Shown here piece after piece: positions 1,855 to 58,603 of a DNA stretch of 64,000 bases. The notes beneath the pieces are model-generated. The model did not search any database. It had not been told where the DNA came from and worked only from the letters and a program-made list of their open reading frames with translations. The stretch is from Malus domestica (lineage: Eukaryota > Streptophyta > Magnoliopsida > Rosales > Rosaceae). Location of the stretch: NCBI RefSeq assembly GCF_042453785.1, contig NC_091664.1, forward strand, positions 4,824,501 to 4,888,500, written 5' to 3'. The translations under genes and the position numbers were made by a program. Numbering within the stretch: position 1 is the stretch's first letter; the number at the start of each line of letters is the position of its first letter.

Positions 1855-1981
1855 CTTGTGGGTAATAATATGGTAGCTAGGCCTTCAAAATTTATGTGTC
1901 TAAACTTTGTTAGTGTTGTTTCTTTGCTATTCTTTTACCCTTCTTGGTCAGAGCGATGTAGTGAGAGTTGCAAGCTTCACG

Positions 1982-2367: not shown

Positions 2368-2371
2368 GTGT

Positions 2372-3648: not shown

Positions 3649-4806
3649 AGTCACTGAGTGGGATCGGCTATATGAATCTTAGAACGCCATTGTGTTCTGT
3701 CCTGTGTCATGTCATCCGTTAGATCCAAGTACTCTAAGTCTTTTCTTAGGGTCTCTCTCAAAGTTTTCCTGGGTCTTCCTCTACCCCTTCGGCCCTGAAC
3801 CTCTGTCCCATACTCGCATCTTCTAATCGGAGCGTCAGTAGGCCTTCTTTGCACATGTCCAAACCACCGTAACCGATTTTCTCTCATCTTTCCTTCAATT
3901 TCGGCTACTCCTACTTTACCCCGGATATCCTCATTCCTAATCTTATCCTTTCTCGTGTGCCCACACATCCAACGAAGCATCCTCATCTCCGCTACACCCA
4001 TTTTGTGTACGTGTTGATGCTTCACCGCCCAACATTCTGTGCCATACAGCATCGCCGGCCTTATTGCCGTCCTGTAAAATTTTCCCTTGAGCTTCAGTGG
4101 CATACGGCGGTCACACAACACGCCGGATGCACTCTTCCACTTCATCCATCCAGCTTGTATTCTATGGTTGAGATCTCCATCTAATTCTCCGTTCTTTTGC
4201 AAGATAGATCCTAGGTAACGAAAACGATCGTTCTTTGGTATTTCTTGATCTCCGATCCTCACCCCTAACTCGTTTTGGCCTCCATTTGCACTGAACTTGC
4301 ACTCCATATATTCTGTCTTTGATCGGCTTAGGCGAAGACCTTTAGATTCCAACACTTCTCTCCAAAGGTTAAGCTTTGCATTTACCCCTTCCTGAGTTTC
4401 ATCTATCAACACTATATCGTCTGCGAAAAACATACACCAAGGAATATCATCTTGAATATGTCCTATTAACTCATCCATTACCAACGCAAAAAGGTAAGGA
4501 CTTAAGGATGAGCCTTGATGTAATCCTACAGTTATGGGAAAACTTTCGGTTTGTCCTTCATGAGTTCTTACGGCAGTCTTTGCTCCTTCATACATATCCT
4601 GTATAGCTTGGATATATGCTACTCGTACTCATTTCTTCTCTAAAATCCTCCAAAGAACGTCTCTTGGGACCCTATCATACGCTTTTTCCAAATCTATAAA
4701 GACCATGTGTAAATCCTTTTTCCCATCTCTATATCTTTCCATCAATCTTCGTAAGAGATAGATTGCCTCCATGGTTGAGCGCCCTGGCATGCGCGATTTC
4801 GTTCTG
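3649..4806 (-). pseudogene. RTE-type LINE reverse transcriptase, 5'-truncated with a nonsense codon
   Basis: Read on the minus strand, the segment encodes the reverse transcriptase of a plant RTE-clade LINE. It has '[10 protein letters not shown]' (4806-4770 area), the motif '[11 protein letters not shown]', then 'GSSLSPYLFALVMDEL' and the catalytic 'FADD'. A C-terminal domain follows, ending 'TQWRSKIHIADPTQ'. A single in-frame TGA at 4629-4631 interrupts it eleven codons before the methionine at 4595; otherwise the frame is open from about 4806 to 3651. The endonuclease part is missing. Upstream of about 4806 the sequence switches abruptly to unrelated DNA. The usual TTG-repeat tail is absent, so both ends are lost. 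A second copy of the family lies at 35972-36588. Confidence 0.85.
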
Positions 4807-6217: not shown

Positions 6218-9160
6218 CTATCTATGCTGTGAAAGCTCCTGATCTATGGCCTCAAATTCTTTAATATTGCTCTTTACATTTTGAACTTTCTTGGATAGCT
6301 GTTCATTATACTCTTCAACGATCTCAGTAAATGCCGTTAGCTGTTCCTGATATGTAGTGCACAGCCGTTTCTTGTTCCGAAGCTCTGCAGTTAATTCTTG
6401 AATTTTCTTATCCTTCTCATCCTACAAACAAAACACAAGACACAAGAGACATGACTTAGATCATACTTGATGCACGAAAAACAAAATGTTGATTAAATAG
6501 GATCATACAGTATATTATATGCACAGAAAGATACATACATCTCCAAACATAGACATATATGCATGCAGTGCACACATTGTTGTTTTGTGTATATTTGCAT
6601 TAAACATTTCCCATGTTCAGTTCAACAATGGAAGAAGAGAATTTTTAAAGCAAATGGGACAACCGCACAAAGAGCTTGAAGGAAATTGAGTTTTGAAACT
6701 TATATCTTATCCAACTGCAATATCTCCAAAATCAGATCACCCAAAGGCTTAACCAGTTCACGTTGTTGACCCTGTGTTATATTCCAAAACAAAAGACAGC
6801 ACAAGAATTTTAGTTTCTTTGAGCCCTAATAAGATGACATCCTACCCTGTGTAGTGTGCACGGTTCTGTAGCACTTAGAATCAGTACACACTGTCATTAG
6901 CATGATTTCTAGCAGTATAACCATCTGCCATACTAATTGCAAAACAGGGATATCTGGATTTAAATCTGTTATTCCTACGAAGTTTGATTGGTGAAATTAT
7001 TTCAAATTACTTATTTTATGTATAAAAGAGACAAGAAATAGAAAGTGGGACAAATTCTTCATATAAAAAGTAACTGAATGAAAAGGAAAAGGCCAGACTA
7101 AATTATGTTCGTGACATAGCATGAAGAAAAGCAAAGTAAGACGTTAAACCAGAAGTTACTCTCACTAGACTACCACAAAAATGAGGCTCAAAATTCACCA
7201 TATTGAGTTTCTACCAGGTTGTAACTTTACAAGGTGAAGCTCATGCCAAGGATATAGAGATTCTAAATGATATCACATATGGTACAGAAATTGTCAATCT
7301 AATTTGGGAGTATTCAACATCAAAATGCAACATCCATAATTGTTTCCGAAGGTAATACACAAAGGACCTAGTCCTGAACTGTATCTATGACTTGCTTTTC
7401 TGTACACAGCCGGTAGAGCTGCCTGAATAAATTTTCACCTCCATCAAGATGGTCTTATAAAACATAAAATAAAATGAAATAAACCAATTCTGCTGATTAT
7501 GCAGAATCCTAGATTCACTTTCTCAATGTCAGTAAGGATCTTCATGTTTTAAAAAGAACTGTTCGTTTCTAATTACATATATGCTTTGAGCAAGGCATTA
7601 AAAAAAATTTACTAGAAATTCATGATACATAAAAACAATTTTTTGGTACTGCTACTAGTCTTCTTAAAAAGCAATACAAGTTAGACTTTAAGAACCAACA
7701 AAGCAGCACTAACCCCAAACAGGAGTACGTATATGGTTTTCCTTTTTTCTGAAAGTACACTATGGATATAATATACAAGAACTGTTTTTTAAAGGAGTAT
7801 AAAGTCTAAATCTTACATCTTAAAATATACATCACCTGGCAAATCAATGATTTGAAGACACTGAAAGTTCAACTATTTATACGAGAATGTCAACAAAATG
7901 AGAAAGATACTCACCAAGGTTTGACGAGCTTCACGTGGGGACACCACTAGTGGATGATTATGATCCTTTATGAATTTTGTAATCACCCATTTACTGGATT
8001 TATCATACTTTACGTGAATCATTGCCTTGCAACCTTCCCTTGTACTTGCTCGTGGTTTTCGAACCGGCCCAAATTTACCTCGAATACTAACACAGTGTCC
8101 CTCCTTATTACACCCAAGTCGACGAGCAAGAATCCTACCATCTCTTTCAGACCGACGACATGACATCACACGCATGACAAATCCAACATGCCGTGCATAC
8201 TCATCATAAAATATCTTGGCAGCATCTTCAGATTCGAATTCCATACCCTCATATGGTTCTACAATGGAATCGTCGTCATATGCAATCAGTTCCTGCGCGT
8301 CAGAACTCTCCAATGCTATATCCCCATCCGAATCCACTGCAATACATTGCCTGTTAAATATCTTCTCAGCTCTAACAAAATCATAACAATATTATCTTTT
8401 GGGCTGGTAGAACAGGCAATATAATGAAATGGGAAAAAATTTAGCTTTCCCATCTAAGGTTAATATGATTCTGCGAAAAAAAACCCAAAATATTACCCAA
8501 CTACGCGCAAAAAAGCATCTTCATTTTCTGGTATTCAATAATCATAGGCAAGTAAAATATACGTTTCTTATTTTATCAAACAGGTGGTGAGCAACATAAA
8601 AAAACACCCAAAATACAATTTACTGCATAATTTCACAACAAATCAAATTGACAAAGTCACTGTAAACTAAATAAATCCCACCACACCCTATAGAAAAGAG
8701 ATAACAGAGAACTACAGATTTTACCCATTTAACAGTGAACAACAGCAGGCAGCTAAGCTAACACTCTTCAATCCCAGTGCCAAAAAAAATGCAAAAAATA
8801 GTATCCGAATTACGAAGTACAGAGACACAGAAACCCAAACAATTTAAACCGATCAAATTTAAGCAAAGTTGCTCCAGATTCAGAGTCCTGGGGTATGAAC
8901 TTGCATGACTGAAATGGGAACAAAGTGGGGATAAGAGGCCAAAATAAATGGAGGGTTTCGACGAAGGGCGAGGCAGAAGAAATGGGTATTCGTTGAAATG
9001 TCGATAGGAACGGAGCACTTACTTGATTCGCGCAAGCTAAGTAGATCTTCGTTTTCCGGTCGGGAGTGAGAACTCCGTGGAGTCTTAAATGCTTCAAATC
9101 GTTTCTTTTCCTTTGAGGAAGATAGACCACGTCAGATGAAAACTCGAAGGCAGACACTTT
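6218..9160 (-). CDS. Short FAR1-domain protein (FRS/FRF-like), paralogue 1
   Basis: Exons (minus strand): 5'-UTR exon ending at 9023; 7915-8336; 6218-6421. The joined reading frame gives about 208 residues. An acidic N-terminus is followed by the FAR1 DNA-binding (WRKY-GCM1-type zinc) domain over roughly residues 30-140, with 'CNKEG', 'REGCKAMI' and 'DHNHPL'. The last exon is a coiled coil ('IQELTAELRNKKRLCTTYQE') ending 'LSQHR'. The MULE-transposase and SWIM domains of full FAR1/FRS proteins are absent, as in the short FAR1-related factors of Arabidopsis (At2g43280/At3g59470 type). Those are nuclear proteins thought to modulate FHY3/FAR1 output. The start codon appears to be split by intron 1: exon 1 ends ...AATCAA and exon 2 begins TGGATTCGG, with acceptor TATTGCAG. 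The upstream limit (about 9160) is an estimate. Confidence 0.85.
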
Positions 9161-34035: not shown

Positions 34036-37000
34036 TTAGAACGCAATAGTTTGCGGTTTTAGTTCGCTAACCTCCATCTGCAAAGGCCTCCAAGCACGCT
34101 CGCACCTTTCCCATCTCCCCTGCATATGAGCCAAAAATGCCTCTGCCCATTTTTCCTTGCTCCCTCTCATGCTAAGATCGTAGGGCACCGAGAAACTGTT
34201 CAACCAATCAACAAAAATCAAATCTCAGTGATAACGGATACTAAAGCGTGTCTCTGTGTCCGGTGCAGGTAAAGACTACCGAGAGTTATATTCTGGGTAG
34301 ATAATATATTATGTGTCAATGACAATTTATAAAGGCACAGGAATGATAAACACAATGGTGAACCCGACCCCCATCCATCTACCGATAATATAACTCTCTC
34401 CACAAATGTAACACTATCCATTCTCCACAACAAGAAAAAAATGCGGATAGAGAGTATCTATTCTCTGTTAAGTGCATCTCCAAGGACTTATAAATGAACC
34501 TTCAACTATGCCCTTACTACATAACTTCTCAAAAGCCTTAACTCAATTAACTTTGGGACTTCCCAACAGTTCGGAAAGAAGGCTAAAAATATAGGGTGGG
34601 GTTCAAAATATCACAAAATTCATCCTCGTTACGCATAACATCAATATCATCTCCAGTACCGATGTGCTCTTCCCATAACAGTCAAAAGAACTTGCACTCT
34701 AAAAAAAATAAAAAAATTCTTTGTGTTGCCTCATCAAGTATTCTTTTCAACTTACAGAAGATATCCATCAATTATAACACTAATAAAAATAAAATAAAAA
34801 ATTCACGGAGAGTTACCTCAAGAGTTCGTCTGGTTGATATACTTCATCAGGGGATCCATTCCTGCAAGAATTACAAACTTTTATCTCAACAAGCGACATT
34901 GCGTCCGTGAGCAATGTATTTTGAAGACTGACCTTTTGGCTAGTACTGTTAAGTATGCAATTAAATTGCTCAAATATGAGAAGTTTTCTGTAGTTTTTGT
35001 TATTTAACTTAGAGCACAACAAGAGACTAGTATTCTCAGCACTTTTTAAGAATTTATCTAAAACAAGCCACAAAAACCAAATGTAAAACATACGAACACA
35101 TTTTTACTTTTATTGGTTACTGGACTTCTTGCAAATCCAAGACACTATACGTGTACGATGCCATGTTAGTACTTTAGAGAATGAAAATATGTATGTGTGA
35201 CCCAAGTGGGACATCGAATATCGTGATAAAATATAAATCTAATAATTCAAATTCTGATATAACTACTGAACGCCTCATAAAACAAGACCAGAAAAACTAA
35301 CCTGCATATTGATATTTTATAGATATGAAGACACTTGGAAGAAAGATTACAAACAGCAGCAACATTATGCTCCTCTCTGAACAAGTACACAACTGGATAC
35401 CCAAGAAGCCATCTGAAGTATTGAACACAAATTTTTAGTGTATGACACTAAGATTCTAATCCCAACATCTAATACAAGAAGAAATTTAAAACTATTAATT
35501 TTCGAATGGGATTTACATGCAACTTCTAACAAGTTCATTCCTTAAAACTTTCTGAAATAGTATAAGAATTACTTCAGAATATCAATTCAGCTTCCAATTT
35601 GAGTGACTTTCTAGCAAACTATTAGACTTACGACTCAAATGTTTAGGAGTTGACGGACAAAACAGGCAGTGGCAAAACAACTCTTTATTTATTTCCCCCC
35701 TCCAGTCCCACTTTATGTTTTATTTCCAGCCTAATTACTGGCATCAGTCAAACTACAAGTTATCGATTTGTCTAGTGAGTTTCCACTTCATGTACTCCAA
35801 ATACTTTGTAGCCAGGTTGTAGACTGGAAGTTCAATACCAAATAAAATAAGATTTTTTTTTCCCATTAATGGGAAAACGGAATCAGATTTCAATTTCTAA
35901 ATATTTTATGCAAGCGTAGGGGACCATCCGACCATAAAAATTTTCATTGTAACTTTTAGTCATTCGGTTATTCCTTGGTGTATGCTTTTCGCAGACGATA
36001 TAGGGTTGATAGATGAAACTCAGGAAGGGGTAAATGCGAAGCTTAACCTTTGGAGAGAAGTGTTGGAATCTAAAGGTCTTCGCCTAAGCCGATCAAAGAC
36101 AGAATATATGGAATACAAGCGGGATGCATGAAGTGGAAGAGTGCATCCGGCGTGTTGTGTGACCGTCGTATGCCACTGAAGCTCAAGGGAAAATTTTATA
36201 GGACGGCAATAAGGGCGGCGATGCTGTATGGCACAGAATGTTGGGCGGTGAAGCATCAACACGTACACAAAATGGGTGTAGCGAAGATGAGGATGCTTCG
36301 TTGGAGGTGTGGGCTCACGAGAAAGGATAAGATTAGGAATGAGTGGGTTGGACATGTGCAAAGAAGGCCTACTGACGCTCCAGTTCGAAGATGTGACTAC
36401 GGGACAGAGGTTCAGGGCCAAAGGGGTAGAGGAAGACCTAGGAAAACTTTGGAAGAGACCCTAAGAAAAGACTTAGAGTACTTGGATCTAACGGAGGACA
36501 TGATACAAAACCGAGCGCAATGGCGTTCTATGATTCACATAGCCGACCCCACTTAGTGGGAAAAGGCTTTGTTGTTGTTGTTGATGTTGGTTATCCAAGC
36601 CAACTTAGTAATGTGCCTGTAAAAGGGACCACCTAACTCCTAAGCAATTATCTGACCATACCAGTTAAAAGTCCATCTGAGTCATTCAGGCTACTTTACA
36701 TATCCAAGTGGTGCTGAAATTGTTCACAAACATATTCAGCATCACAGAAACCTGAAGCAGGGAAATGCTACATCCCAAGGGTAGTAAAGGTGTATCCAAA
36801 CGTAAGCTTAGACAGTTACCCATTTAGCGTTGGCAGTAAGACCTCAGTATTTTGCATGCAGCTACTCAGATCGATAAATTCAGATGACTGAGAAGGGATG
36901 AGTTCATTTATGGGCGGTTCAGCATCAGCTGTTATACTGTGAGATGGCGAAGCCTCATCTTTCCTTCCACCAACAGGAAATACCAGAGAGAACAACTTCT

Positions 37001-44035: not shown

Positions 44036-45891
44036 TGGTAAGGGGGAGCTCAAAGCTTATTTCAGTTGTTGGTTTGCTTGCTTTGTGTGGGTGTGTTGTA
44101 TGCTATAAAGTGAGGGATGCAAAAAGACCCCTTGAATAGGGAAAGATTTTGTTGTTAAATCTCATGCCAAGAACTTGGGGGCAAATTATATCCATTTCTT
44201 TTAAAGGTTGTCTGCATTTGGGGATTTTGCTCTCTTTTGCTCATCCAACCTAATCTTTCTTTATCCAAACCATCTTTTTGTATACTCATTGTTTTTGCCA
44301 AATAGTTGACAAAAACGATCTGTTGCATGCTTAAATGGAAACAACAAAAACGATCTTTTTGTATACTCATTGTTTTTATTTGACTCTCTCTCTCCCGTTT
44401 CTCTGCTTTCTCTTCTTCCATTTGACTCTCTCTCTCTCTCTCCCGCATGCTCAGATACAAACCCATACTTTCTCTTCATTTCATTATCTTTCTCTTCAAT
44501 TTCGGTAAATCAAACTATTTTTCCCCAATTTAAAACCAACGATATGAAAAGGCTAAGGGAGGCGAGTGTGGACTGAACTGCATCAAACTATGATTTCCCT
44601 GCACTTCGCAAACATCGCGTCGTTCCGGCCAGCGCAAACGCCGAATTTTTCCCTAGAAGGAAGTGCGTTTCGGTCTGTTTCGCCGGTATTTCGGCAGATT
44701 CGTCTCCAACTCAGCCCGGAAAGCCCGAAATCGAGCTCGAATTCATCTGGGTTGTTGGGTAACGAAGCTACGTTTGGGTAACGAAGCATTTGGGTTGCTG
44801 GGTTTGTGGTGGAGGAGGAGGCTACAGGAGAGAGGGAGGGTAACGAAGCTACGGGAGAGGGAGGCTGCGGGAGAGAGAAGGAGGGTAGACAATGGAATTT
44901 TTGTGTTCAACATACGTGGAACAACCCGTTCCAGGGGGGAGGCGGGACGCAAAAACACCCAATTTCTGTCCCGTGGAACAGCGCGTTCCACTCATTTTTG
45001 GCGTACCAAACGCGGGACGGAACGCCTCGTCCCATTCTGTCCCGTCCCGTTCCACGTACCAAACGCACCCTTAGTGAGTACCAAACAACATACATAAATC
45101 TAATCAAGTCCCATCCCATCCAGTCTAATACTACAAGTTATATCCATGTCAGCCCATCAAACGTGCCCCAAGAGCATGAGGAAGGTTATGAGGAGATGAG
45201 GGAGGTTGAGAAAGAGAGGATTTTGATATTAAATCCATAAGAAAAAAAGTCTGTCACGTCCTTGTTTGATTCGGTTTAGCTTTTAAACTGAAAACCCTAT
45301 AACATAACCGGTTCAAGCTAGAACTTGTACATTTCCTAAAAGTCTCAAAAAAATTATTTTATGGAGTCCCATGTCGAATAATTTATCACTAAGATGGGTT
45401 GCAATATAATATATATATATATAGCTACTTATTGAAAATAACGATGAGGGCAATTATACCATGGACAATGATGATCATAATTGAATGAGCTGTTAATTGA
45501 ATTATTGGAAATTTGATGTGGAGGATAACCAGGATTAAATATGTTATGAAACCAACTGTTATAAACAAATAGAAATAATTGAAAAAATGATTGATCTGTG
45601 TTTACCTTGAATTTGAGATATTCGATGAATTGACTGTGAGTAAGGATTTTATGCTATTCAAAATCAGTTGTTATGAAAATATTCTTCATAATGAAAATAA
45701 TGAATTCAAAATAATGATGCAAATATAATTTGAAAATAAGTTTTATTGCAAAACACTGGAACTTACAATTGATTTACTGACGATTGAGTCAGCAAATAAG
45801 AAAATGATTGATGAAAAGGATATTGGTGCACGCAAGCATCCTTGACATTTGAAAGTTAAAAGTGTTTACAATTTTGATTTCTTTGGGTACA
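44036..45891. other. Intergenic, transposon-like GC-rich block
   Basis: 44370-44450 has CT microsatellite runs. 44560-45075 is an unusually GC-rich block with internal repeats (GGGTAACGAAGC near 44757 and 44777; GTTCCA/CCCGT motifs) ending CGTACCAAACGCACCC. The end resembles the terminus of a high-copy Rosaceae DNA element, but I cannot find its other end. ORFs of up to 144 codons here have no signature. 45240-45891 is AT-rich with nothing recognised. Confidence 0.4.
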
Positions 45892-46182
45892 GTGTGAACT
45901 CAAAGAAAGTTTTTACTGAGAAATTGTGAAAATTCCAAACTTGAAATCTTCCTCATCCGGAGTCTACTTTTTATAGACTTGGAAAAAGGTATTGGGTGAC
46001 TTGCTTTTACTATTGATGAATGATGACTTGCTTTCACTATTGATGAACAGTGAAATTTGTTGGAATAATTGCTGCTTTCATTGTAGAATATGGATGATTG
46101 AATGACTCCAAACTTTGTCAGAATCATTGGTGGGAATGTGCTGGCTGACTGAATAATTCCATGCTTTGTCAAAATTATTGGT
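45892..46182 (-). repeat. Pararetrovirus terminal direct repeat, left copy
   Basis: Begins GTGTGAACTCAAAGAAAG and ends TTATTGGT. About 90% identical to 55066-55356 in the same orientation. In viral orientation it is the downstream copy, preceded by viral sequence and followed by unrelated DNA. Confidence 0.9.
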
Positions 46183-46301
46183 GCGAATATTGTCTGAACG
46201 CTTCACATGGTGACTTTGGAAAGATGACTGAATTTTCACATGGTAATTGTCCTAATGTTCACATGGTGACTTGACATGATGACTGAAGTTTTCACATGAC
46301 T

Positions 46302-47991
46302 TTATGCAAATGGGTCATGGGAATCCTGGTAGTCGACCCACTTAGCTGACTGTGTTTTTTGACTTGTTGACTTGGCTGGTTGCTGTGAGGACGCATCTGA
46401 AGATTCGGAGTCTGAAACTTCTTCTTCTTTAGTGTGGAGCATCGCTGCTTCTGCAAGTAATTGTTGTGCTAAATATTTGAGCTGAGTGACTTTATTCTTC
46501 TTTGAGCCTGATGATTTGGAAGACTTGATTGTTCTTTTGAAGGATGAGGATGGACTAATGTCCAATAATAACTGTTCCGGGATGACTGGTAGTGATAGCT
46601 GTGCTGGTTGTGCCAGAATGATTGGAGGTGGAGTAATGGGAAATTCAATGAGGACCTAATTGATGGTTGAATTTATCCCACCGCTTGATTGATCTGTCCT
46701 GGTAGTCGACCCACTTAGCTGACTGTGTTTTTTGACTTGTTGACTTGGCTGGTTGCTGTGAGGACGCATCTGAAGATTCGGAGTCTGAAACTTCTTCTTC
46801 TTTAGTGTGGAGCATCGCTGCTTCTGCAAGTAATTGTTGTGCTAAATATTTGAGCTGAGTGACTTTATTCTTCTTTGAGCCTGATGATTTGGAAGACTTG
46901 ATTGTTCTTTTGAAGGATGAGGATGGACTAATGTCCAATAATAACTGTTCCGGGATGACTGGTAGTGATAGCTGTGCTGGTTGTGCCAGAATGATTGGAG
47001 GTGGAGTAATGGGAAATTCAATGAGGACCTAATTGATGGTTGAATTTATCCCACCGCTTGATTGATCTGATTCTGTAGACTTCACGTGTTTCGACTTCAT
47101 AATTCCACTTCATAATCCATGAGACTTTGTACTTTGGCCATGAATATTGGGAGAAGTGTAATTCTGTAGTTGAATCGGCTTTTGTCAAATTTCTGCTGGA
47201 AATTGGCGGATAGGACCTGCATAAACTCTTTTGGTAGGAGACTGGCTATTAGGCTGTGAATTGACCACCATTTTGGGAACCATGCAGGAAAATTCAATAT
47301 GAAACTCTTGTCAAAATTAATGAACCATGAATGACTAAAATCTTCTGTTTGATGGAGGAAGATGTTAATCCATGCATCAAAGTAATTGTAATGGTTATTG
47401 GGAATATGGACATATTGAGTATGAAGAGATTTGGTTTTATAAAAGGGGATTCTCCAATCTGATTAGGTTAAAAAACCTTCCAATGTAAAGAGAATAGTAG
47501 AGGATTTTGTTTTCATGGGTTTTGCTGTAGAGAGGTTTGATTGAAATTGACTCAGTTTCACTGAGGATAGCTTGATATTATTTCAGTGTTTTATGTGATG
47601 TTATAAGATGATAATGGAAATTAGGTGGAAAAACTGTTTTGGCTAATTTTTCTGGTGCTTGTTCTTGATTAAGATTGAAAAGGATACTGAAAATATATTC
47701 ATTGGGGTTTTTCTTGACGTATGGTGATGTTTTGGTATAACTGACTGGTTGGGATGATGATGATTGGTATGTTGGGGTTGAATAAAGGTCATATTGACTG
47801 ACTAATGCCGTTTGGTAATTGGGACGTGGTGTTTGGTAATTTGGCCTAAAGTTTCCTATTGTGGAATATAAGGGAGTGAAACGGTTGGTAATGGCTAAGG
47901 CCGATGAAGAATATGAGCTTGATTCTTGTTTTACTGGTGGTGGTGGTAAAGTGGCTGGAAGCCTCCTTTGATCAGGTCTTCTTGCTGTCAT
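46302..47991 (-). pseudogene. 3'-proximal ORF remnants of the pararetrovirus
   Basis: Three fragments downstream of RNase H. 47578-47991 has a Pro/Ser/Tyr-rich region starting after 'TARRPDQRR'. 47097-47297 contains 'WFPKWW', a tryptophan-rich motif of a kind I associate with plant pararetrovirus ORFs. The Ser/Lys-rich ORF occurs twice because of the 373-bp duplication. Functions are not assigned; a transactivator or accessory role is only a guess from position. Confidence 0.5.
46325..47070 (-). repeat. 373-bp near-perfect tandem duplication
   Basis: Copies 46325-46697 and 46698-47070 look identical by eye, in contrast to the decayed surroundings. Each contains the same Ser-rich ORF fragment ('DISPSSSFKRTIKSSKSSGS'). 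Confidence 0.92.
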
Positions 47992-49753
47992 TTTTCTCCT
48001 GCAAAAATTCTTTGGTTAGGAAATCAGGGATGCAATTTTGACTACCTTTGATGTATTCGATTTCAAAATAAAAATACTTAATATTGCTTGCCATCATGCA
48101 AAAATCTGTTTTGATGCAATGTTTTGAACATTTTTTTGTAAAACATGTTTTATAGATTTGCAATCGACTCTGACTAAAAACTTTTGATTTAATAAATCAT
48201 TTTGAAATTTGCTAATGCATAATACTATAGATAATATTTCTTTCTTAATATTACTATAATTACTTTGTGTTGGATTCCATACTCCTGAATGGAAACGAAC
48301 AATTTGTTCAGGAGATCCGGAAGAGATTGACTACTTGAGAATACCTCCGTAACCAATTTCAGAAGCATCAGTTTCAACAATTTTGAATGAATTGGGAGTT
48401 GGAATGCCAAGATAGGGCAAAGTCTTAATATGTAATTTAATTTGTTTGACAATGGAAGTATGAGTATTGAACCAAGGTGAAGGATTTTCTTTTGGACGAT
48501 CAAACAAGGGTTTGCATTGTTGTTTAGGATGTGGATAAAATTCTGCAACATAATTTAAGGATCCTAAAAATTTTTGTAACTGGGTTTTATCAGTGATTTC
48601 ATCTGGGAACTTATCTGCAAACTGAATTACTCTATCTATTGGCTAAATGGTTGACTAATGGATATTGTATTCTAAAAACCTAATTTTGGTCTGAAATAAC
48701 TTAATTTTGATTGATGAGACAACTAGTCTATTTGACTTAATTATCCTAGCAAACATATTTAAGTGTTTCTAATGCTCATCTATCGATTTGGAATAAATGA
48801 GAACATCGTCAATATAAACAATTGAGAAATGACTGTATTGATTAAATATTTCATTCATGATATTTTGAAATTCTCTGGATGCATTCTTAAGATCGAATGA
48901 CATTACATTTCATTCATAATGGTCGAAAGAAGTGACAAATGTAGTTTTGTATTTGTCATCATCATGAATTTGAATCTGCCAAAATCCAGACTTCATGTCG
49001 AATTTTGAGAATATTACAGCTTGACTAAGTCTCTTAATTAAATCTCTTTTGTTAGGAATTAGATACCGTATCCATTCCAGGACTTCATTAAGAGGTTTGT
49101 AATTAATGACTAACTTAGGAGTTTCTCTTTCTAAATCAGCGTTTTTTCTGGACATAGAAAGTAGGACAAGACCAGGGTGATTTACTTTTCCTAATGATTC
49201 CTTTATTGAGAAGTTCTTGGATTTCTATTTTGCATTATTCCATAACTTCTTGACTCATTTGGATTGGTCTGGCTTTTGTTGGTATTTTCTTTTCATTAAA
49301 TTGCTTATTGTAAGGAAGTTTAACAATGAGTTGTTTTCTGTGCCAAAAACCGTTGGGAATATCCGAACAAATTTCATGAACAAGTTTATTTTGAAAGTTG
49401 TCAATGTTTTGTAACAAAGATTTATTTGTTAATTGTTCTTCAATTCCTTTGTAATTAATTTCTTCTTTTAAGAAATTAATTTGTTGTGATTTTTTGGTGA
49501 CTAGATTTATGGTTTTTGAGATACTATCTTTTTGTAATTGTCTTAATTTTTTGAGATCTGTTTCCGTGCAAAACTTAAATGTGATTTTTTGTCCTAACAT
49601 TCTAGTGGTTATACGGTCCTGGTGCACCTTAAAAGGATATATGAGAGTTATGAAAGGGGGACCTAAAATGATTGGGTCTGAAATGGTTTTAATCAAAACA
49701 AATGGGGTTTTAAAACAAACATGGGTTTTTGGGATTTCATATTTTAACTGCAT
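47992..49753 (-). pseudogene. Pararetroviral protease-reverse transcriptase-RNase H region
   Basis: In viral orientation the upstream part (49753-49240) is protease-linker-like, followed by the reverse transcriptase. Conserved segments include 'LVINYKPLNEVLEWIRYLIP' and 'SKFDMKSGFWQIQIH' (49155-48910), and the catalytic YIDD at 48805-48816. An RNase H-like part with the 'TDAS' motif lies near 48350-48375. In-frame stops include TGA at 48910-48912 and TAG at 48769-48771. The polymerase cannot be made from this copy. Confidence 0.88.
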
Positions 49754-50074
49754 TGGTGACTAGTTTGCTGCACTAAGAATTTATGTTGATTTATGAAAAT
49801 ACATAGTGGGAATTAAACCTTCTTGAATACAATTCAAATCCGCACATGAGTCAATTAAGGCAATTGTTTCTAACCGGAAATCTTCAATTATTATTTTTAT
49901 TTTAGAATACCATTTTTGGATCCTAATTTTTTGTAGTAATCCTAAAACTAGGTTTTTGGTTGGATTTTCTGTGAACTTGAATTCTGATTCTTGGTCTGAG
50001 GAATAACTATTGTGTTCTTCATCGTTATTGCTAAGGAGTGCTTGTGTTTGGATACTACTGAGATGTGAGCGAAT

Positions 50075-51620
50075 TTATATGTTTTCTGATTTTAAGGACT
50101 TAATTTCTTCCTTAATTTTGTTGACTTCTCTTTGTAGATCTTTGACCGTAATTTCTTTCTTAGCCTTATTAAACATTTCCAAGGTTGTGCTAAGACAGAT
50201 TTTTGGGGTTGCTTGTGGTTGACTAGTACTGGTTTCTTCTTGGGAGACTAACTTCTTAAGCTTGTTTAAGTAAAATGATTTTAACTCAGGGTCATCTACT
50301 TTACTAATTAACTCGATAAGAAGATTTTCTTGTTCTTCTTGTTTATTGAGGGCTGGAATTCTCTTACAACAAGTATATGTGCATCTTATCTTTATGTCAG
50401 GGGATGAAAGGCTACTTGAGGAGTGATTGAGAGAAGATGAATTAGATTCTAAATCGTCTTTGGATTGACTATGGTCTGTGTCTCTTAATTCCAAGACCTG
50501 GATTAACTCGGTTTTCTCTTCCTCATAGATTTTCAACTGGTTGATTGTTTTCTTAACTCTACATTTGTTTTCATAATGACCAAATTTGCCACACTTGTAG
50601 CAATTTCCTTTTTGTTCTTGGTTTTTGTGAGTGGAATTTTCTTGAGGGTTTCCTCTTCCACTTGCTAGACTTGGGTTTCTCGTAAAATTTATTTGTTTCA
50701 AAACCCTTATTTTTGAATTTGTTATATTTAGGGTGTCTCCTACTGGAGTATCTATTTGGGTACCTATTGTAGGCTTTTGATCTTTTCTTTTTGTTAGATG
50801 GTGCAATAGGAGGTAATTCATATTGTTCACGAAATGTTCCTAATTCGTATTTGGCTATTGACTTGTCTTTGTTGACTTGTTTTGTAATTTTCATATCAAT
50901 TCACATTTTCAATCATTCTTTCTGGATAATATTAATAATATTTCCATAAGTAAGGGTATGATATAGTATGATACCTTCTTCATTAACTAAAACGTTTCTG
51001 ATTTTATGGGCAAATAGATTTGGTAATCCATTAATGAATTTTTCTTTCCAAAATAGTTGATTACTATTTTCTCTAAGCATGACTCTGGACATGAAAACAT
51101 CTTTGTACCAGCTAAAATCACTTAAGGTTGGACATCTTAAGTTACTGAGTTGGTCATGAATCCTGAATGTGACATTACTAGGTGTCCCTATGAAATGTTC
51201 CATGATAGTGAAAAGTAATGTGTTGACTGAATCCGGGACCCCTCTTCTAATATGTTCATCGAAAACATGTGTTCCTTCTTCATTTCTTTTTACTGCATTT
51301 TTTTATTTCATTTATGGATTGTTCAATAAGATGTTTTTCCCACCAGGAATGGAGTATTCATGTAAATCTAGTGACCAAAAGGTCCACAACTTGGGTTTGA
51401 CTAAGTTATGATTGGTAATATAACTATTAGCAACCATGGAGATGTGTTGTAATTTGTTCAAAAGTTCTTGTTCTGATAATCCATCTATATTTCATTCATA
51501 GAGTTTATCAGCCGAGATTGAGAATTGGTTTTGAATGTTTCTTTCTTTAAATTGAATATCCAGAGGTGTTGGCCTTGGATACCAATTTTTGGTAAAAGTT
51601 GTCGGGTTGACTCTTTTGTT
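50075..51620 (-). pseudogene. Pararetroviral coat-like region with zinc knuckle
   Basis: Contains the CX2CX4HX4C nucleic-acid-binding knuckle at 50561-50602 (14 codons), preceded by a Lys/Arg-rich basic stretch (50600-50890) and followed by an acidic segment with Ser runs. Upstream, 'FWKEKFINGLPNLFAHKIR' matches the core of caulimovirid coat proteins. An in-frame TGA at 51492-51494 falls where a Trp is expected in the family; further stops and shifts occur up to about 52600. Confidence 0.8.
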
Positions 51621-52629
51621 TGTGATTCGTTTTAGTTCAAAATTTTGAAAAGCTTCTTCTACTTTTCTGATGGAATTTGTTTCACTCTCGCCTTCTGAAT
51701 CTCATATTGCAGAAGTTGTTTCTGGTTGAGATTCATTTGGGTATTGTAAAACATTGATTGTTTTTCTTGTTTTAACTCTTGTAACATTTAATCTATTTTT
51801 TGACTTGTGGAGATTGTTTTCAAAGCTGTTGTGCTAGATGAGGCTTCTAGGAAGTTGACTAAGGATTTTTCCTTAATTGTTGGTTTGGAATGTGAAAGTC
51901 TATCTATTTTGCTTTCTATTTTATCTAGTTGTTTTCCTATGGTGTGTAGACTCTAGTTTGTGAAATTGTTTTGTTCAATGACTGGCCTGACTCCTACATC
52001 TTTTTTGGGAAGTTTGAAAGGAGTGGCTGGTACATGTGTGTTTGCGGTTGTGATTAAAATTGTTTATTGTGGAGGGTGACTAGAGGAGACTATGATTTTG
52101 TCTTCTTTGACCCAATTTTCTTTGGTGATGACTTCTAACTTCTTTTCAAACTCGTAATATTTTTCAACGAAATCGAAGAAAAATACTTCAAATCTGTGTT
52201 TTTTTCATGAAATTGGTCCATTTATTGTAAATGTCCAATTTTTGTTCTTTTCTATTTTCCCTAAAGATGTTTCTTCTAGGAATGTTTTCTATTGCTTCGA
52301 TGTCAGCATTGAGTTTCTTCCATTGAATTTTGAATGGTTTGTTTAGGACTAGTAGTTGGTGGTTGACTTGATTTGCTTCGAAATCATATTCTGTTTGAGA
52401 GGTTTGTTCTCCTTGATTTTGGGTGTTAGGTTGGTATCCTGGATGAGTAACCTGAGAGGTTGTTTATACTGATTTTAACTTCATATTGATCAAATCATTA
52501 ATTAATTATTGTTGGGTAAATACTAAGCTATTATCTATTGATTTTAATTTTCTATTGACTAAAGAATTAATTAAATCTTGATCCCGACCCACCATATCGG
52601 CTGATGTGGATCTAGAAAAAGAATTCCTA

Positions 52630-52951
52630 GTGGGTTCTAAAGATTTGTGTAACACTAGATTTCCTAGCTGGAGGGTTGAAATTGATTTTAACTATTCTGT
52701 CAAAATATTGTTCTATGTTGTCTAGGTTGACTAAGCTATTTTGTATGCTTACTGGTTTGCTTTCATTGATCAAGCACCAATATGAAGGTAGACTGATATT
52801 TGACCATTTGATAGTTTTGGGTATTTTAATGTTGACATTTTCTTGATTGGTTTGTATTAAGAGTGTGTGGTCTCGAGGACTTTTAACTAAGGCTTGGAAA
52901 TTCATGTTTATTCTTGTGACTTTGTAATAAACTTTAAAAATTAAGGCTAAT
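52630..52951 (-). pseudogene. Movement protein, downstream part (after insertion)
   Basis: The frame continues the movement protein from the other side of the 1.64-kb insertion. The 160-codon ORF at 52627-53109 is chimeric: its first ~50 codons come from the inserted LTR-like element. Confidence 0.7.
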
Positions 52952-52956
52952 GGTTG

Positions 52957-54600
52957 TGTTCGTGGCAGGAATTCCTGTCGGGGATATTTCCTGGCCGGCG
53001 AGCACACAGCTCCCTTGGAGGTTGGCGCCGGTTGAGGGCTGCTGTCGGGCTTCTGCTTTCCTGTCGGGCTTTGTCGGGCAAGTCTCGTCGGGCAAGACTC
53101 TTCGGGCAAGGCTTAAAGAGAAGGACAGCGTTAACTTTGAGAGGTGCCTTTGTGGGGCCTTAGGTGTAGGCCTTGAGGCTCTCAATCAAGGTTAACATTT
53201 TGGTGCTCAGGCGTGCCACTGCCATCTTCATTATGGCAGATGTCGAATAGATGTCAAGTTTTAGTTGTGAATATGCATACGCCCGAGAAACTGTGTTGGA
53301 TATAACAGGTGCCTTTGTGGGGCCTTAGGTATAGGCCTTGAGGCTTCCTGTCAAACTAAACCAGTGCTTGAGCATATTATATCTGGTCTTTATGGTTGTC
53401 GGGGTCTTATCACTATTATATTTCTGATTATCCGAGTCTGAGAGGTAGAGCGAACCCAAATAGGTGCCTTTGTGAGGCCTTAGGTGTAGGCCTTGAGGCT
53501 TCCCATTAGAGTCTGTTCTTATACTCAAACCATCTAGACCGCAGAATAGAATAAATCCAAATAAGTGCCTTTGTGGGGCCTTAGGTGTAGGCCTTGAGGC
53601 TTCCTATCAGAATCCATTCTATACTTAAGCGTTCTATAATAATCATGATATAATAGAAAGAAAACTAGAAGGTAGGTCGATTACTTGCGCCCTAAGTAAC
53701 TTCAGACTTCTCGTTTATCAAGGATTGTCGTGGATGGGTTAAGTCCACATAAAGTTCTTTTTTATGCCTTGAGGCCAAGGACTTTTAAACTAATCAGATT
53801 TACATGCCTGCGGGCTTAGGACTTGGATCTGATTTAAGCATTGAAGATATATTTAAATCGGATCCAAGTATTGAGAAAGCTTTGTCATCGTGATTTTGCT
53901 AGAAACAACTTGCATATAACTAAAAATATACAACATATTGCTAGACTTTAAAGAAAGAGAAGACAAAGACAGAGCAAAGCAGGTCGGGCAAGATTAAACC
54001 TTATCAATTAAGGCTGATCGTCTTGCAGGTCCCTATCTTTGTAGTTCTGTCAAAGGTCTGAAAGCTTAGAGGTGGAGAGGGGAAAGGAGAATACAAAAGG
54101 TGAATCGATACTACAACAAGTTTGAACAAGGTAGCAGAGCTATTACAGAGTTTAGGAGAAAAGATTATCCCGAGGGGGATGAAAGCTTGGGCTGACTACA
54201 GCTTCGTTTTGAAAGGCAAATCTGGCTTTTTGAGCAGAGTTTGTGCTTTTGTTTGTTTGTTTGAGTGTCTTTATTCCTGTCTTCTCTTCCTCCTTTTATA
54301 GACGACTCGGTTTGGCTCCTGTAGCGACAGCTTTGTCCGAATGCGGTCTGAGGGTGATGACTCATCAGCTTTATTACATGTAATGCCACCATAAAGTACT
54401 TTATGGGCTGTGCAGTCTGATCAGTCTACACCACTTGGTCCTTGGGTAGGTAGACAAGTGGCCTTTGTGAATTGTATCAAGTCAGAAAGGGCCCTTTCCT
54501 GCTTTCCCAAGTTTCGGCCGGGCTTTGATCTTCTATTCCTCCAGGCCTCCTTTTGGGCCTACTCCATCCTTGGGCCAAAAATCAAGTTTTAATCCAAACA
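52957..54600. mobile_element. Solo-LTR-like insertion in the movement-protein gene
   Basis: 1,644 bp beginning TGTTCG and ending CCAAACA, i.e. TG...CA termini, flanked by the perfect 5-bp duplication GGTTG at 52952-52956 and 54601-54605. No internal retrotransposon coding region, primer-binding site or second LTR is visible, so a solo LTR formed by recombination is the simplest reading. It contains four dispersed copies of a 38-bp motif (separate entry). Orientation and lineage not determined. Confidence 0.85.
53142..53605 (+). repeat. Four spaced copies of a 38-bp motif
   Basis: GTGCCTTTGTGGGGCCTTAG and the following TAGGCCTTGAGGCTT occur near 53143, 53311, 53463 and 53567, at unequal spacing (168, 152 and 104 bp), with unrelated sequence between. 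They lie inside the solo-LTR-like element. Confidence 0.85.
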
Positions 54601-54605
54601 GGTTG

Positions 54606-55065
54606 GACTCTTTCAAGAACTTGGTACAATGAGGTTTTGATGTTTAATGTGAGTGCTTTCAGTATGTGAGGATCTGAAAGACTTATCGTGAGATCTGAGA
54701 AACAATCAAAATGAATTGGTCCGTTGTAAAGGCTTGACTCAATCATTCCAAGAATGCTATCATTGAAGTCAATGAATCTTGCATCTCGGAGACATAACAA
54801 AATAGAGGTATTGAGGCTTCTTCTTGTTAAGGGCTTGACTGCTATTTGGACTAGACCTATGTGAATGTAATTGTAACCATCTTTTCTATGAGTTTTAATT
54901 TGTTCTTGTGTGAATAACTGACAAGTCTCATGTTCTTTACAAAGAGCATAAGCTTTTTCAACTGTTTTGACGTGATGTTCACTTCTAAAAGAGGCTTTTG
55001 ACCATTTCTTTTTGTAAATGTTTTTACTAGAAACCTTGGGGATATTCCAATCTCCAAAGTCGACC
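54606..55065 (-). pseudogene. Movement protein (30K superfamily), upstream part
   Basis: In one open frame the segment carries the conserved core of caulimovirid movement proteins: 'YIHIGLVQIAVKP', 'LCLRDARFIDFNDS' and 'LSDPHILKALTLNIKT'. These proteins enlarge plasmodesmata for cell-to-cell spread. The frame is cut at 54605 by the LTR-like insertion, and the rest lies at 52630-52951. Confidence 0.88.
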
Positions 55066-55356
55066 GTGTGAACTCAAAGAAAGTTTTTATTGGGAAATTA
55101 TGGAAATTCCAAACTTGAAACCTTCCTCCTGCGGAGTCCACTTCTTATAGAATTGGAAAAAGATCTTGGGTGATTTGCTTTTACTATTGATGAATGATGA
55201 CTTGCTTTCACTATTGCTGAACAGTGAAATTTGTTGGAATAATTGATGCTTTCATTGTAGAATATGGATGATTGAATGACTCTAAACTTTGTCAGAATCA
55301 TTGGCAGGAACGTGCTGGCTCATTGAATAATTCCATGCTTTGTAGGAATTATTGGT
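55066..55356 (-). repeat. Pararetrovirus terminal direct repeat, right copy
   Basis: The counterpart of 45892-46182, equal in length (291 bp). It leads directly into the movement-protein region. Immediately outside, at 55357-55385, is a TG/TA microsatellite. Confidence 0.9.
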
Positions 55357-55864
55357 ATGTGTGTGTATATATATATATAAATAAATATAAAAGATAATTC
55401 CAAATTGAATATCTCTTGATCCCATATGAGATCCAGTTCTACACCCTAGCACTGAACAAACGAATAGAAATTGAACTTCACTTCGCGGGAATGGCATCAT
55501 TTATTAAGAAGTGCTAGCGTTGACGAGATGAGCTTGGTTCTTTTTAACGCGCAATCGCTTGACAATACATGCTTCAAGACACTCTTTTTTCTCATAAACA
55601 CCAATTACCACTGTCGCTTGGTATTATAACAGCAGGCACATAATCTGTGCCGTATGATCATATTGCTGACTAGGCAAAATTACATATCGACGGATCAAAT
55701 AAAAGGGGCAGGAATCCCACAAAATGCATTATAAATTCTTAAATACGTACTGGTATGCACTTAGTATGAACATATATAATAAATACATAAATACGTACGT
55801 GCGTGTACTTAGTATGAACGTATATAATTCAACCTATCAACTAATCCATCAAGTTGATACATGT
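55357..55864. other. 3' flank of the BBX gene
   Basis: A (TG)n(TA)n run at 55357-55380, then AT-rich DNA expected to include the BBX 3' UTR. Nothing else recognised. Confidence 0.5.
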
Positions 55865-58603
55865 CTAAAATCTGCCGAGGTCAGGAACAGTGAAATACTC
55901 ATCATCGTCATCTGGGATTTCAATCCTAGGCTTCTTCTGCGGACTGCTCGATTTAGGGGGTCTGTAGGAGGTAAAATTGCTAGACTCCGGTGCTGGGAGC
56001 TGCGGAACTTCAGCTGCTGCCGGTGCCTCCTGAGGATACTGATCACCGAAAATACCCATGTCTGCTATCCATTCGAGCTCTCCAAACTCAAGCGAATCCT
56101 TCTGAAGAAAGCACAGTCCAGAGTTTCTCAAGGTTAGGGATAGATGAAAGAAAAGGCAAACAACTTATCAACAATGTTGGCATCAATTTTATATAAATGT
56201 TTTTTCTATACTGACTTCACCCGAACAACTGCCTGAACTCCATCCCAACTAAGCAATGACCTATTTAGAGCTATCAACTTATTGAAGTCATATAATCTCG
56301 TATAATCGTGCATATATGCTCTATGAATGATCAAACTAAAATAGCGATGAGAAAAAGAAAAGTGAACTCAATTAAAATTATCCTCTACTTCTATCTTGGA
56401 AGTCCAAAAAACTCATGAAGTTTCTGTACTCTCCCTGGTTTATATACAGTAGATAAATAATTAATTTCAAACCCTGACTTCCACGGATATTATGATAACG
56501 CCCATTTCTCTGGTCTTTCAACAGAAAAAGGGTAAGTTCTGGTGCATCTTTCAATGCTGTTTCTACGTGTTCAATTGAAACCATGCTATTCTGTGAGAAG
56601 ACAATTGTGTAATTATAATCATTATGAGTAAAGCATAACATCCAAATGTGTAGGGATCTTTCTAACCTTGTCAGAAGATTCAAAATCTGATAATTGCAGT
56701 AAGTCATCAACACCCCAAGGTGATGAGATGCCTGAAGCCTGTGGTGCTGAGACTTTTGTTGAAATCTTCTGTGCACCTTGATTGGATGGCTCCAAGCTAC
56801 TCGTTTCAGCTTCCTTAGTACTACTGGAGGCCAATGGCACTCGGATTCCTGTGGCAAGGAACCTCTGGTGGTTTGCAGAGAGGCTATTGGCTGAATGAAT
56901 TGGTTCATCACAATCCTGACAAAAGAGGGCTCTGTCTTCTACGCAGAATATAAAAGCTATCTTATCCTGCAAATCAGAATATATGTGTGAGAGGGGGAGA
57001 TTGAAATTTGAGCAATTACTTCAAGAGAATTTAACAAACTCATCAGAATCCAGTGATGCTAAGACAGATTTAAAACGAAACCTTATTTATCTTTCAAGAA
57101 CTCTTACGTGAGTTTCTTGTTGTTCATTAGTAATTGAGATGAAGACGGTTGATTTCAAGAAAGCAGAAATAAACCAAGAGGAAAGCTCAAATGTGGCTTA
57201 AGAAATTCAAGCTGATCATCTTGCATAGTCTGCTACTACAGTAATTATAAGAACCCGTCAGCCTTTGATTCCCTGATTCTGCTCATCTTACGGAGCTGTC
57301 GAAACATCTCTGTCTACCCCCCACTATGTTTAACTCGGAAGAAAGAGTAAAACGCCCTGGAATATAGTTATAAATGATGTACCATAAATTATAAATCCTT
57401 CCTGAATTACAGCAAAACCTAAGACTACTCGAGTAATTTCAGAATAACACTTTCTCTAATTGCCTTACCTTTCCCTACTCTCCAACGCATCAATGAATTT
57501 TTTTCTCATCTTCTCCATGACTCAAACCATGGTCCACAACAAGGACTAAATTGTACCCTTTGTGCTTAAGAATTAAAAGGCACCTTTTACTTTCCAATTC
57601 AATAAAAAAATTCCTGATTATGGATCAATCATTATTAAATTTGACGAATCGACATTCTCAGAATCCACAAGGCTGGACATCTACTCAGCCATTAGCTGAC
57701 TTGCATTGCAAGTAGCGAACAAACTCTCAAAATCCCCATGACTCAACCATTCACTGACTTACATTGCAAGTAGTGAACAAACACTTCATTCACTAGCAAC
57801 ATACACTTCACAAATTAGAAATGACTACTTTCATATGCACAAAAATTAATCATCAGTTGAGTTGCGCTCATCTGTATGGCGTCCGCATCACTCCATATAA
57901 CTAATCAACCTGCTTAGCCCAAAAGCCGGTCACACCTAAGCGGACTATGTTGAGAACATAAAGTTTCAAACCGGGCCAATCATATCGTACTTATAATTTT
58001 ACTCGAAAGAAAATTATACTACTAAGTTATTGGGAGTTTTAACAAAACTCTCTTGTACTGTTCACTTTTAACGAAAACCCATATTTTTACCTTTCTTGGT
58101 ACTATTCACTTACCCTTTTATTTGTCATTTTTCATTAAAACTAACGTTTTTGAGTCATTTTCGTTAATTTTCCTTATTAGATATTGGAAACCTCTACCCA
58201 TTGTCACTTGGTTTCGGGTTTAGTTAAGAATTGGATGCTCCAACTCCAACACTCTTAGCACCCTTAGACCTATCTCAATCCGGCTCACCCTTTACATTCA
58301 TCAAATCTAAATACATAATTAACTAATATCAGGAACTAAAACCCCAAACAAAAACATAAAAATTGGAAATTGGGAAATTAATCAACACATAGAAAGAAAA
58401 TGGGAAGTGAAAATAATTACTTGGCAAATGTCGCATTTAGGAAGCTTGTTGGAGAGGCTCTGAAGGAGCAGCCTCTGGTGTTTGCTTGCAAGCTTATTCG
58501 CTGCGTGTACTTCAACGTCGCATTTGGCGCACAGAGCCGCCTCGTCGGCGCAACAAATCACCGTCGCCGGCGCCTTCTCGCACACATCACACTGAATCTT
58601 CAT
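55865..58603 (-). CDS. BBX24: Double B-box zinc-finger protein, BBX24/BBX25 (STO/STH) type
   Basis: Exons (minus): 58421-58603, 56667-56966, 55865-56101; introns GT-AG and phase 0, giving 239 residues. B-box 1 starts at Cys5 ('CDVCEKAPATVICC...CDVEVHAANKL'). B-box 2 starts at 'CDICQ' (residues 57-61) and continues in exon 2 ('FCQDCDEPIHSANSL'), so intron 1 cuts B-box 2. There is no CCT domain. The C-terminus has 'LEFGELEWIADMGIFG', a basic patch and a terminal 'VPDLG', the VP motif by which this clade binds COP1. Family members act in the nucleus downstream of phytochrome and UVR8, modulating HY5 output. The true start is the ATG at 58603. BBX24 and BBX25 are hard to separate by eye, so the symbol is provisional. 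Intron 1 carries a MULE-type MITE. Confidence 0.93.
58032..58174. mobile_element. MULE-type MITE in BBX intron 1
   Basis: Second copy of the family at 33369, with ends GGGAGTTTTAACAAAAC and TTAATTTTCCT and internal TTGGTACTATTCACTT. The 9-bp duplication is not preserved. Confidence 0.7.

What the first reader, a model, noticed from the sequence alone, without database searches (positions are those of the whole stretch)
45892..55356. Near unit-length endogenous pararetrovirus with terminal redundancy
Seen: two 291-bp direct repeats, about 90% alike, bracket a block with movement protein, coat/zinc-knuckle, reverse transcriptase and RNase H homology in one orientation. The left copy ends a few codons into the first viral ORF and the right copy leads straight into it. 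So the integrated DNA runs slightly more than once around the circular genome. Known: caulimovirids have no integrase and no LTRs, but integrated petuviruses can carry 'quasi' terminal repeats. Inference: integration of a circularly permuted or concatemeric molecule, leaving a potentially self-excisable structure before decay.
Basis: partly seen in the sequence, partly recalled or inferred. Interest (0 to 1): 0.8.

Follow-up and report, generated by a model that had tools for sequence, protein, structure and literature searches.

The report
Decayed plant virus insert in apple
This is an old, broken copy of a plant DNA virus stuck in an apple chromosome; it is of a known kind, but its ends and those of its sister copies show well how such virus DNA gets captured.

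Summary
The finding is real, but its structure was misread. The host is apple: a fructokinase ORF is 99% identical to Malus domestica over 66% of its length. The minus strand carries a decayed, two-ORF, florendovirus-like caulimovirid with movement, coat, zinc-knuckle, protease, RT and RNase H pieces. The repeats are 45889-46182 and 55063-55356, 294 bp, 91.5% alike.

They are the viral promoter, not the viral ends. The 464 bp left of 45889 is viral leader, found beside the promoter in all 6 other apple loci first compared. Viral homology stops 17 nt before the expected tRNA-Met primer site, next to a (TA)n tract; the other end abuts (TG/TA)n. In the right copy the promoter is fused to movement-protein codon ~40. 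Next to a sister copy, 847 bp is missing: leader, primer site and start codon. Among 40 scored matches only this locus has the junction, which lies at microhomology. Self-excision of an intact viral circle is therefore not supported.

Of 39 copies traced from the promoter, 20 end within -30..+18 of the primer site, as proposed for rice and tobacco. Greater-than-unit apple loci were already published. New member of a known kind.

The parts
45409..45423 (.). (TA)n tract at the left host junction
   Evidence: One of only 3 (TA)>=5 tracts in the 64-kb window; sequence read
45425..45888 (-). Viral leader after the promoter; homology ends at 45430, 17 nt before the position of the tRNA-Met primer site; AATAAA at 45747
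   Evidence: 82-93% identical to sequence directly beside the promoter repeat in 6 other apple loci; end mapped; AATAAA
45889..46182 (-). 3' copy of the 294-bp viral promoter repeat (TATA at 45975)
   Evidence: at least 44 places in the genome
46183..46301 (-). Rest of intergenic region upstream of the promoter
   Evidence: 84-95% matched, mostly in pieces, beside the promoter in the 6 loci compared
46302..48015 (-). ORF2 remains, broken into at least 4 stop-to-stop pieces; no Pfam family above cutoff in the 3 pieces scanned
   Evidence: one piece has 2 relatives, 76% and 41% identical
46324..47069 (-). Perfect 373-bp tandem duplication inside ORF2
48094..48642 (-). RNase H region, interrupted by a stop
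   Evidence: Pfam RT_RNaseH 2.2e-13 for 48094-48330; RT_RNaseH_2 9.5e-6, below cutoff, for 48331-48642
48643..49759 (-). Reverse transcriptase region, broken; YIDD motif readable
   Evidence: RVT_1 2.6e-6, just below cutoff, for the 48910-49224 piece; no Pfam match for the 49235-49759 piece; YIDD
49781..50074 (-). Aspartic protease piece; D-S-C where the motif recalled for this family is D-[ST]-G
   Evidence: RVP E 0.017, below cutoff
50075..51302 (-). Coat domain and zinc knuckle, frameshifted
   Evidence: Caulimovir_coat_dom 1.2e-6; zf-CCHC 0.0076, below cutoff
52627..52951 (-). MP C-terminal part, beyond the inserted LTR
   Evidence: continues the MP of relatives by reading together
52952..52956 (.). 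Target-site duplication GGTTG (left)
52957..54600 (.). 1,644-bp TG...CA insert, read as a solo LTR of an unrelated retrotransposon inside the MP gene
   Evidence: TG/CA ends and 5-bp TSD; family not confirmed, search unanswered
54601..54605 (.). Target-site duplication GGTTG (right)
54606..55062 (-). MP core, from about codon 40 on
   Evidence: Pfam MP 3.9e-13; 80% identity to an apple MP; missing N terminus
55062..55063 (-). Junction: promoter fused to MP, 847 bp absent relative to L009, at TGT / ACAnTGT microhomology
55063..55356 (-). 5' copy of the promoter repeat (TATA-like at 55149)
55357..55379 (.). (TG)n(TA)n tract at the right host junction

Best explanation
A florendovirus-like caulimovirid infected an ancestor of apple. 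A near-unit linear viral DNA, opened at or near the minus-strand discontinuity (the tRNA-Met primer site), was captured as filler at a (TG/TA)n microsatellite, about 0.5 kb downstream of a B-box gene. The molecule ran from the promoter around the genome and again through promoter and leader, stopping 17 nt short of the primer site; or else a separate promoter fragment was joined on. Shown here: the ends, the flanking repeats, the leader identity, the junction with microhomology. Inferred: that the missing 847 bp (leader, primer site, MP start) was lost by microhomology-mediated joining, during or after integration. Later a solo LTR, a 373-bp duplication and many stops and frameshifts accumulated. 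It is an inert fossil.
For: Domains. MP relatives in Malus (80%) and Prunus (68%). Leader found beside the promoter elsewhere. The two sides abut two of the three (TA)>=5 tracts in the window. 20 of 39 promoter-side copies end within -30..+18 of the primer site; among the 31 ends lying between leader start and +18, about 3 would be expected in that interval (P ~1e-13; 18 of 29, P ~6e-12 without the window and one tandem duplicate). 16 of those 20 run into TA/TG/CA repeats within 30 nt, control 4.2% of random window 30-mers. Only the window spans the junction among 40 scored matches (164 candidates). Microhomology TGT within ACAnTGT. The two repeats group together in a tree of 16 promoter copies, ultrafast bootstrap 81. 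Literature: ends at discontinuities and AT-repeat flanks in rice (PMC526188, passages); (TA)n flanks for florendoviruses (PMC4241990, passages).
Against: The 5' viral end (55356) is in the promoter, not at the primer site. The window's 3' repeat is slightly closer to three other copies (7.7-7.8%) than to its partner (8.5%), so common origin in one molecule is only weakly supported. 19 of 39 copies do not end near the primer site (11 earlier, 3 at +51, 5 run on). 5' ends upstream of MP cluster less: 12 of 30 within -30..+40, four of them sharing one junction. The leader's predicted fold is not unusual (z -1.58). No empty site was seen (right flank only tested).
Confidence: 0.75

Rival explanations
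1. Composite insertion: two viral fragments of the same infection (a 294-bp promoter piece and a near-unit piece from MP codon ~40 round to the leader end) were ligated in one repair event, so there never was a greater-than-unit molecule.
For: Microhomology at the junction is also expected for fragment joining. The near-unit piece runs from primer site +395 (L009 numbering) to -17, that is, a genome opened near the discontinuity. Other apple loci show viral fragments joined near the primer site (L006 to ORF1, L010 twice to ORF2).
Against: Head-to-tail orientation and the right order need a coincidence that a greater-than-unit molecule explains for free. Greater-than-unit loci are reported in apple (PMC4241990, passage).
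Confidence: 0.35
2. An LTR retrotransposon with 294-bp LTRs that captured a movement protein.
For: Two direct terminal repeats with a promoter-like TATA, RT and RNase H between them.
Against: By reading, the repeats lack TG...CA ends and a target duplication. Viral leader continues beyond one repeat. Sister copy L009 carries the repeat directly upstream of leader, tRNA-Met site and MP. No integrase domain in the 15 viral pieces scanned.
Confidence: 0.02
3. True terminal redundancy ending within ORF1 and a self-excisable provirus.
For: Two copies of the promoter bracket a near-unit genome.
Against: The left viral end is about 460 bp further out; the right junction lacks the leader, primer site and first ~40 MP codons; the genes are broken in many places.
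Confidence: 0.03

Closest known systems
Endogenous florendoviruses (Geering et al. 2014, PMC4241990)
   Same: Two-ORF layout, domain order MP-CP-ZF-AP-RT-RH, approximate ORF sizes, genome about 8.0 kb by length arithmetic (reported 7.2-8.5 kb), (TA)n flanks, presence in Malus, greater-than-unit loci reported in Malus x domestica, Prunus persica and Glycine max (section 6 and passages).
   Different: This locus is broken, and its 5' copy lacks leader, primer site and MP start.
Endogenous RTBV-like sequences of rice (Kunii et al. 2004, PMC526188)
   Same: Viral ends at the intergenic region and the discontinuities, AT-repeat flanks; integration of open viral DNA was proposed there (passages).
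   Different: Another virus group. In apple the end cluster is resolved to within a few tens of bases of the primer site.
Endogenous petunia vein clearing virus (petuvirus) with quasi-terminal repeats
   Same: Repeated viral regulatory region at both sides of integrated viral DNA; quasi-terminal repeats and tandem copies are mentioned in PMC8256270 and PMC10377300 (passages).
   Different: Petunia copies are described as tandem arrays that can be activated; this one is a single decayed copy. Sequence relation to petuviruses was not tested.

Membership tests
Caulimoviridae | Movement protein, coat domain with zinc knuckle, RT and RNase H in one orientation | tested here: met
   zinc knuckle, RVT_1 and protease matches lie below Pfam cutoffs
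Caulimoviridae | tRNA-Met primer binding site at genome start | tested here: met
   Met in sister copies only: exact in L009 at 7791 (same place as L007 2247), one mismatch in L008. In the window element itself no viral-strand 12-mer match with <=2 mismatches (one opposite-strand match lies in the inserted LTR), because it stops 17 nt short
Caulimoviridae | No integrase | tested here: inconclusive
   No integrase domain in the 15 viral pieces scanned; not every short piece was scanned
Florendovirus | ORF1 polyprotein of 205-216 kDa and ORF2 of 45-58 kDa without known homologues | tested here: met
   Length arithmetic coordinates less LTR and duplication: about 1,850 codons (roughly 213 kDa) and about 440 codons (roughly 49 kDa); no Pfam family above cutoff in 3 ORF2 pieces. 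Criteria from PMC4241990 section 6, which notes that a petuvirus-like citrus virus looks superficially similar, so this alone does not decide
Florendovirus | Genome of 7.2-8.5 kb | tested here: met
   About 8.0 kb, from window distances plus the 847 bp seen in L009
Florendovirus | (TA)n flanks (frequent, not obligatory) | tested here: met
Florendovirus | Clade in AP-RT-RH phylogeny | not testable with these tools
   No named caulimovirid reference RT was reachable; viral-contig scans with MP and RT pieces confirmed no relative
Petuvirus | RT affinity to petunia vein clearing virus; tandem arrays with quasi-terminal repeats | not tested
   No reference sequence reachable; no second viral copy in the window by self-comparison
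Ty3/gypsy LTR retrotransposon | TG...CA LTRs with target-site duplication and integrase | tested here: not met
   Repeat ends and flanks read; no integrase domain in 15 pieces

The most novel reading that the evidence does not exclude
In apple, florendovirus capture is end-specific: the preferred substrate is a linear reverse-transcription product with one defined end at the tRNA-Met primer site, joined to (TG)n/(TA)n microsatellites, perhaps helped by microhomology between the TTTGGTAT end and the TG/TA tract. Promoter repeats like this one are by-products of that process, not LTR relics.
Probability: 0.5. Interest if true: 0.5.

Novelty: new member of a known kind. Interest (0 to 1): 0.35.

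Why it matters
How integrase-less plant viruses enter chromosomes is called speculative in a 2023 review (PMC10377300, section 3.1 read). The apple copies give near base-level data on it: ends pile up at the primer site and mostly run into TG/TA repeats. The single locus is ordinary and inert. It also shows how a local deletion can make a promoter repeat look like an LTR or a clean terminal redundancy.

Tried and rejected
Relatives in viral contigs: three scans (MP piece, RT piece, MP alignment A1), none confirmed. Primer site in the window: weak 3-mismatch candidates at 45554 and 45461 were at first taken as possible sites and then dropped, since sister copies place the true site just outside the insert. 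Leader folding: z = -1.58, 7 of 100 shuffles as stable, no support for a viral leader from structure alone. Sequence skews: the candidate leader shares C>G on the sense strand with the element but not its A>T bias; mixed. Solved structures: no meaningful match for MP (best E 0.79). Rfam: 0 matches in the window at gathering thresholds. Homeologous empty site: the right flank is essentially single-copy, the 5 other matches being short (each about 80-150 of 476 bases); the left flank search did not complete. Solo-LTR family search did not complete. Genome-wide MP protein search did not complete.

Dating: 25 of 294 differences, K2P 0.091, gives 3.5, 6.5 and 11.4 My for assumed rates of 1.3e-8, 7e-9 and 4e-9 per site per year (the rates are my own assumption from recall). 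This is an upper-bound kind of estimate, because the repeats may not have been identical at integration.
Full report
WHERE IT IS. The window lies at G000:C4:4824501-4888500 of a 651-Mb, 19-contig genome. A fructokinase ORF in the window is 99% identical, over 66% of the query, to Malus domestica EV2_032794; the longest contig listed for that protein has 31,738,030 bases, the same length as contig C4. I take the host to be apple. The element is on the minus strand. It starts about 0.5 kb beyond a reading frame at 55865-56164 (no Pfam match) that I take, by recall and position, to be the last exon of the B-box gene whose B-box is detected, just under cutoff, at 56622-57020.

WHAT WAS REPORTED. 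The two direct repeats exist: 45889-46182 and 55063-55356, 294 bp without gaps, 269/294 identical, E = 3e-120. They hold a TATA-like box at 45975 and 55149 on the viral strand. Between them lie pieces of a caulimovirid polyprotein. Pfam gives MP 3.9e-13, coat domain 1.2e-6, RT 2.6e-6 (just under its cutoff), RNase H 2.2e-13, zinc knuckle 0.0076 (under cutoff), and a weak protease match (0.017, under cutoff) with a changed active-site triad, D-S-C (the usual D-[ST]-G is recalled). The MP piece has 251 relatives at E <= 0.001, of which 120 were listed, among them Malus domestica 80%, Prunus brigantina 68%, Lithocarpus 52% and Pistacia 44% identity.

WHAT WAS MISREAD. First, MP relatives start about 40 residues before the window's MP reading frame. 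Second, the 464 bp to the left of 45889, taken as outside the virus, lie directly beside the same repeat in all 6 other apple loci first compared, at 82-93% identity, and the leader is present in 36 of 37 loci re-examined. In sister copy L009 the order is promoter repeat (7045-7338), leader (7339-7771), an exact tRNA-Met primer site at 7791, then MP. Against that copy the window's right side lacks 847 bp: the leader, the primer site and about the first 40 MP codons. A 200-bp query across the window's promoter-MP junction (junction at query 100/101) matches in full only at the window. Of the 39 other matches scored, 38 lie on the MP side, ending at query 98-107, and 1 on the promoter side, starting at 105 (40 of 164 candidates were scored). 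At the junction the two natural sequences share TGT within ACAnTGT, a microhomology. So the apparent ORF start at the repeat edge is a scar, seen at this locus only.

THE TRUE ENDS. On the left the viral homology stops at 45430, 17 nt before the position of the primer site, and a (TA)n tract follows a few bases on (45409-45423). On the right it stops at 55356, and (TG)n(TA)n follows (55366-55379 for the TA part). The whole window holds only three (TA)>=5 tracts, two of which bracket this element. This agrees with the TA flanks reported for florendoviruses (PMC4241990, passages read) and with the AT-repeat flanks of rice elements (PMC526188, passages read).

THE SISTER COPIES. One search found 44 places for the promoter repeat (40 of 76 candidates scored, so a lower bound); the loci fetched cover all of them, some places being second fragments of one copy. 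One search lists 43 leader traces, the window's left one included. Three begin at -71, -44 and -43 of the primer site and run on into the region before MP; they were left out. Of the remaining 40, one was cut by the fetch. Of the 39 left, 20 end within -30..+18 of the first base of the primer site (window included), 11 end earlier (-354 to -42), 3 at +51 and 5 run on. For one of the three at +51, L042, the plain sequence suggests a break or change already after the first dozen primer-site bases; I kept the value. Among the 31 ends that fall between leader start and +18, 3.0 would be expected in that 49-nt interval by uniform breaks; P is about 1e-13, or 6e-12 for 18 of 29 after dropping the window and one tandem duplicate. 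The interval was chosen after seeing the data, and segmental duplicates beyond that pair were not collapsed. 16 of the 20 run into TA/TG/CA repeats within 30 nt, against 4.2% of random window 30-mers. Of the other four, a tandem pair (L010) is joined to ORF2 sequence, one (L006) to ORF1 sequence, and one (L005) runs into sequence with no match to the viral pieces. On the other side, of 34 loci fetched upstream of MP, 30 gave a 5' end: 10 lie at -478 to -79, 12 within -30..+40, 8 at +57 to +244. Four of the 12 share one junction and are probably one event. The enrichment there is weaker.

MECHANISM. The simplest account is capture of open viral DNA, one end of which is the minus-strand discontinuity at the tRNA-Met primer site, during repair of breaks at TG/TA microsatellites. 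Rice and tobacco work proposed this (PMC526188, passages; the tobacco paper itself was not seen). In this locus the captured DNA went round past the promoter a second time, or a promoter fragment was joined on; the 847-bp gap at microhomology fits either. A tree of 16 promoter copies puts the two window repeats together with ultrafast bootstrap 81, but the 3' repeat is marginally nearer to three other copies (7.7-7.8%) than to its partner (8.5%), so this is weak.

AFTERWARDS. A 1,644-bp TG...CA insert with GGTTG on both sides sits in the MP gene; I read it as a solo LTR. A perfect 373-bp tandem duplication lies in ORF2; its identity says that it is recent or an assembly error. ORF1 and ORF2 are cut into many stop-to-stop pieces. 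Length arithmetic without those inserts gives a genome near 8.0 kb, ORF1 near 213 kDa and ORF2 near 49 kDa, within the ranges given for florendoviruses (PMC4241990 section 6 read). Genus placement by RT phylogeny could not be done.

NOVELTY. PMC4241990 (passage) already reports greater-than-unit florendovirus loci in Malus x domestica and suggests release by recombination or transcription. A search for Malus, Pyrus, Rosaceae and endogenous pararetroviruses (6 papers) and one for apple genome and Caulimoviridae (5 papers) listed no paper whose title or abstract start concerned this locus or end-mapping in apple; a search joining florendovirus, primer binding site, junction and microhomology listed none on the topic among its best 8 of 77. 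The locus is a new member of a known kind. The end clustering is the more useful result and supports an existing proposal.

CHECK. Corrected then: the left end (45425-45430), the intergenic match range, the coverage of the 44 places, and the primer-motif statement for the window.

Noticed in passing
C3:10560900-10588500 (L009-L011): A cluster of florendovirus-like pieces with the promoter repeat at roughly 1-kb and 9-10-kb spacings; two tandem leader copies are joined to the same internal ORF2 region just before the primer site.
   Followed up: partly
C10:11039740-11085120 and C10:19473990-19504050 (L070, L073, L074, L078): Four MP-bearing copies share one 5' junction beside a (TA)n tract, suggesting copying of an integrated locus by host duplication.
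   Followed up: no
C9:20518849-20527880 (L029, L035): Two copies about 6 kb apart in opposite orientation share the same end at +51 of the primer site and the same few bases before (TA)n, apparently a duplicated insertion.
   Followed up: no
window 3651-4628 (-) and 35969-36558: A reverse transcriptase fragment (RVT_1 5.9e-16; non-LTR type by my reading) with a 90-97% similar, inverted copy 32 kb away.
   Followed up: no
window 853-2579: A nest of local tandem repeats of several periods, up to 99% alike.
   Followed up: no
L051 (C11:9346260-9347620): Two promoter-leader pieces in inverted orientation facing each other.
   Followed up: no
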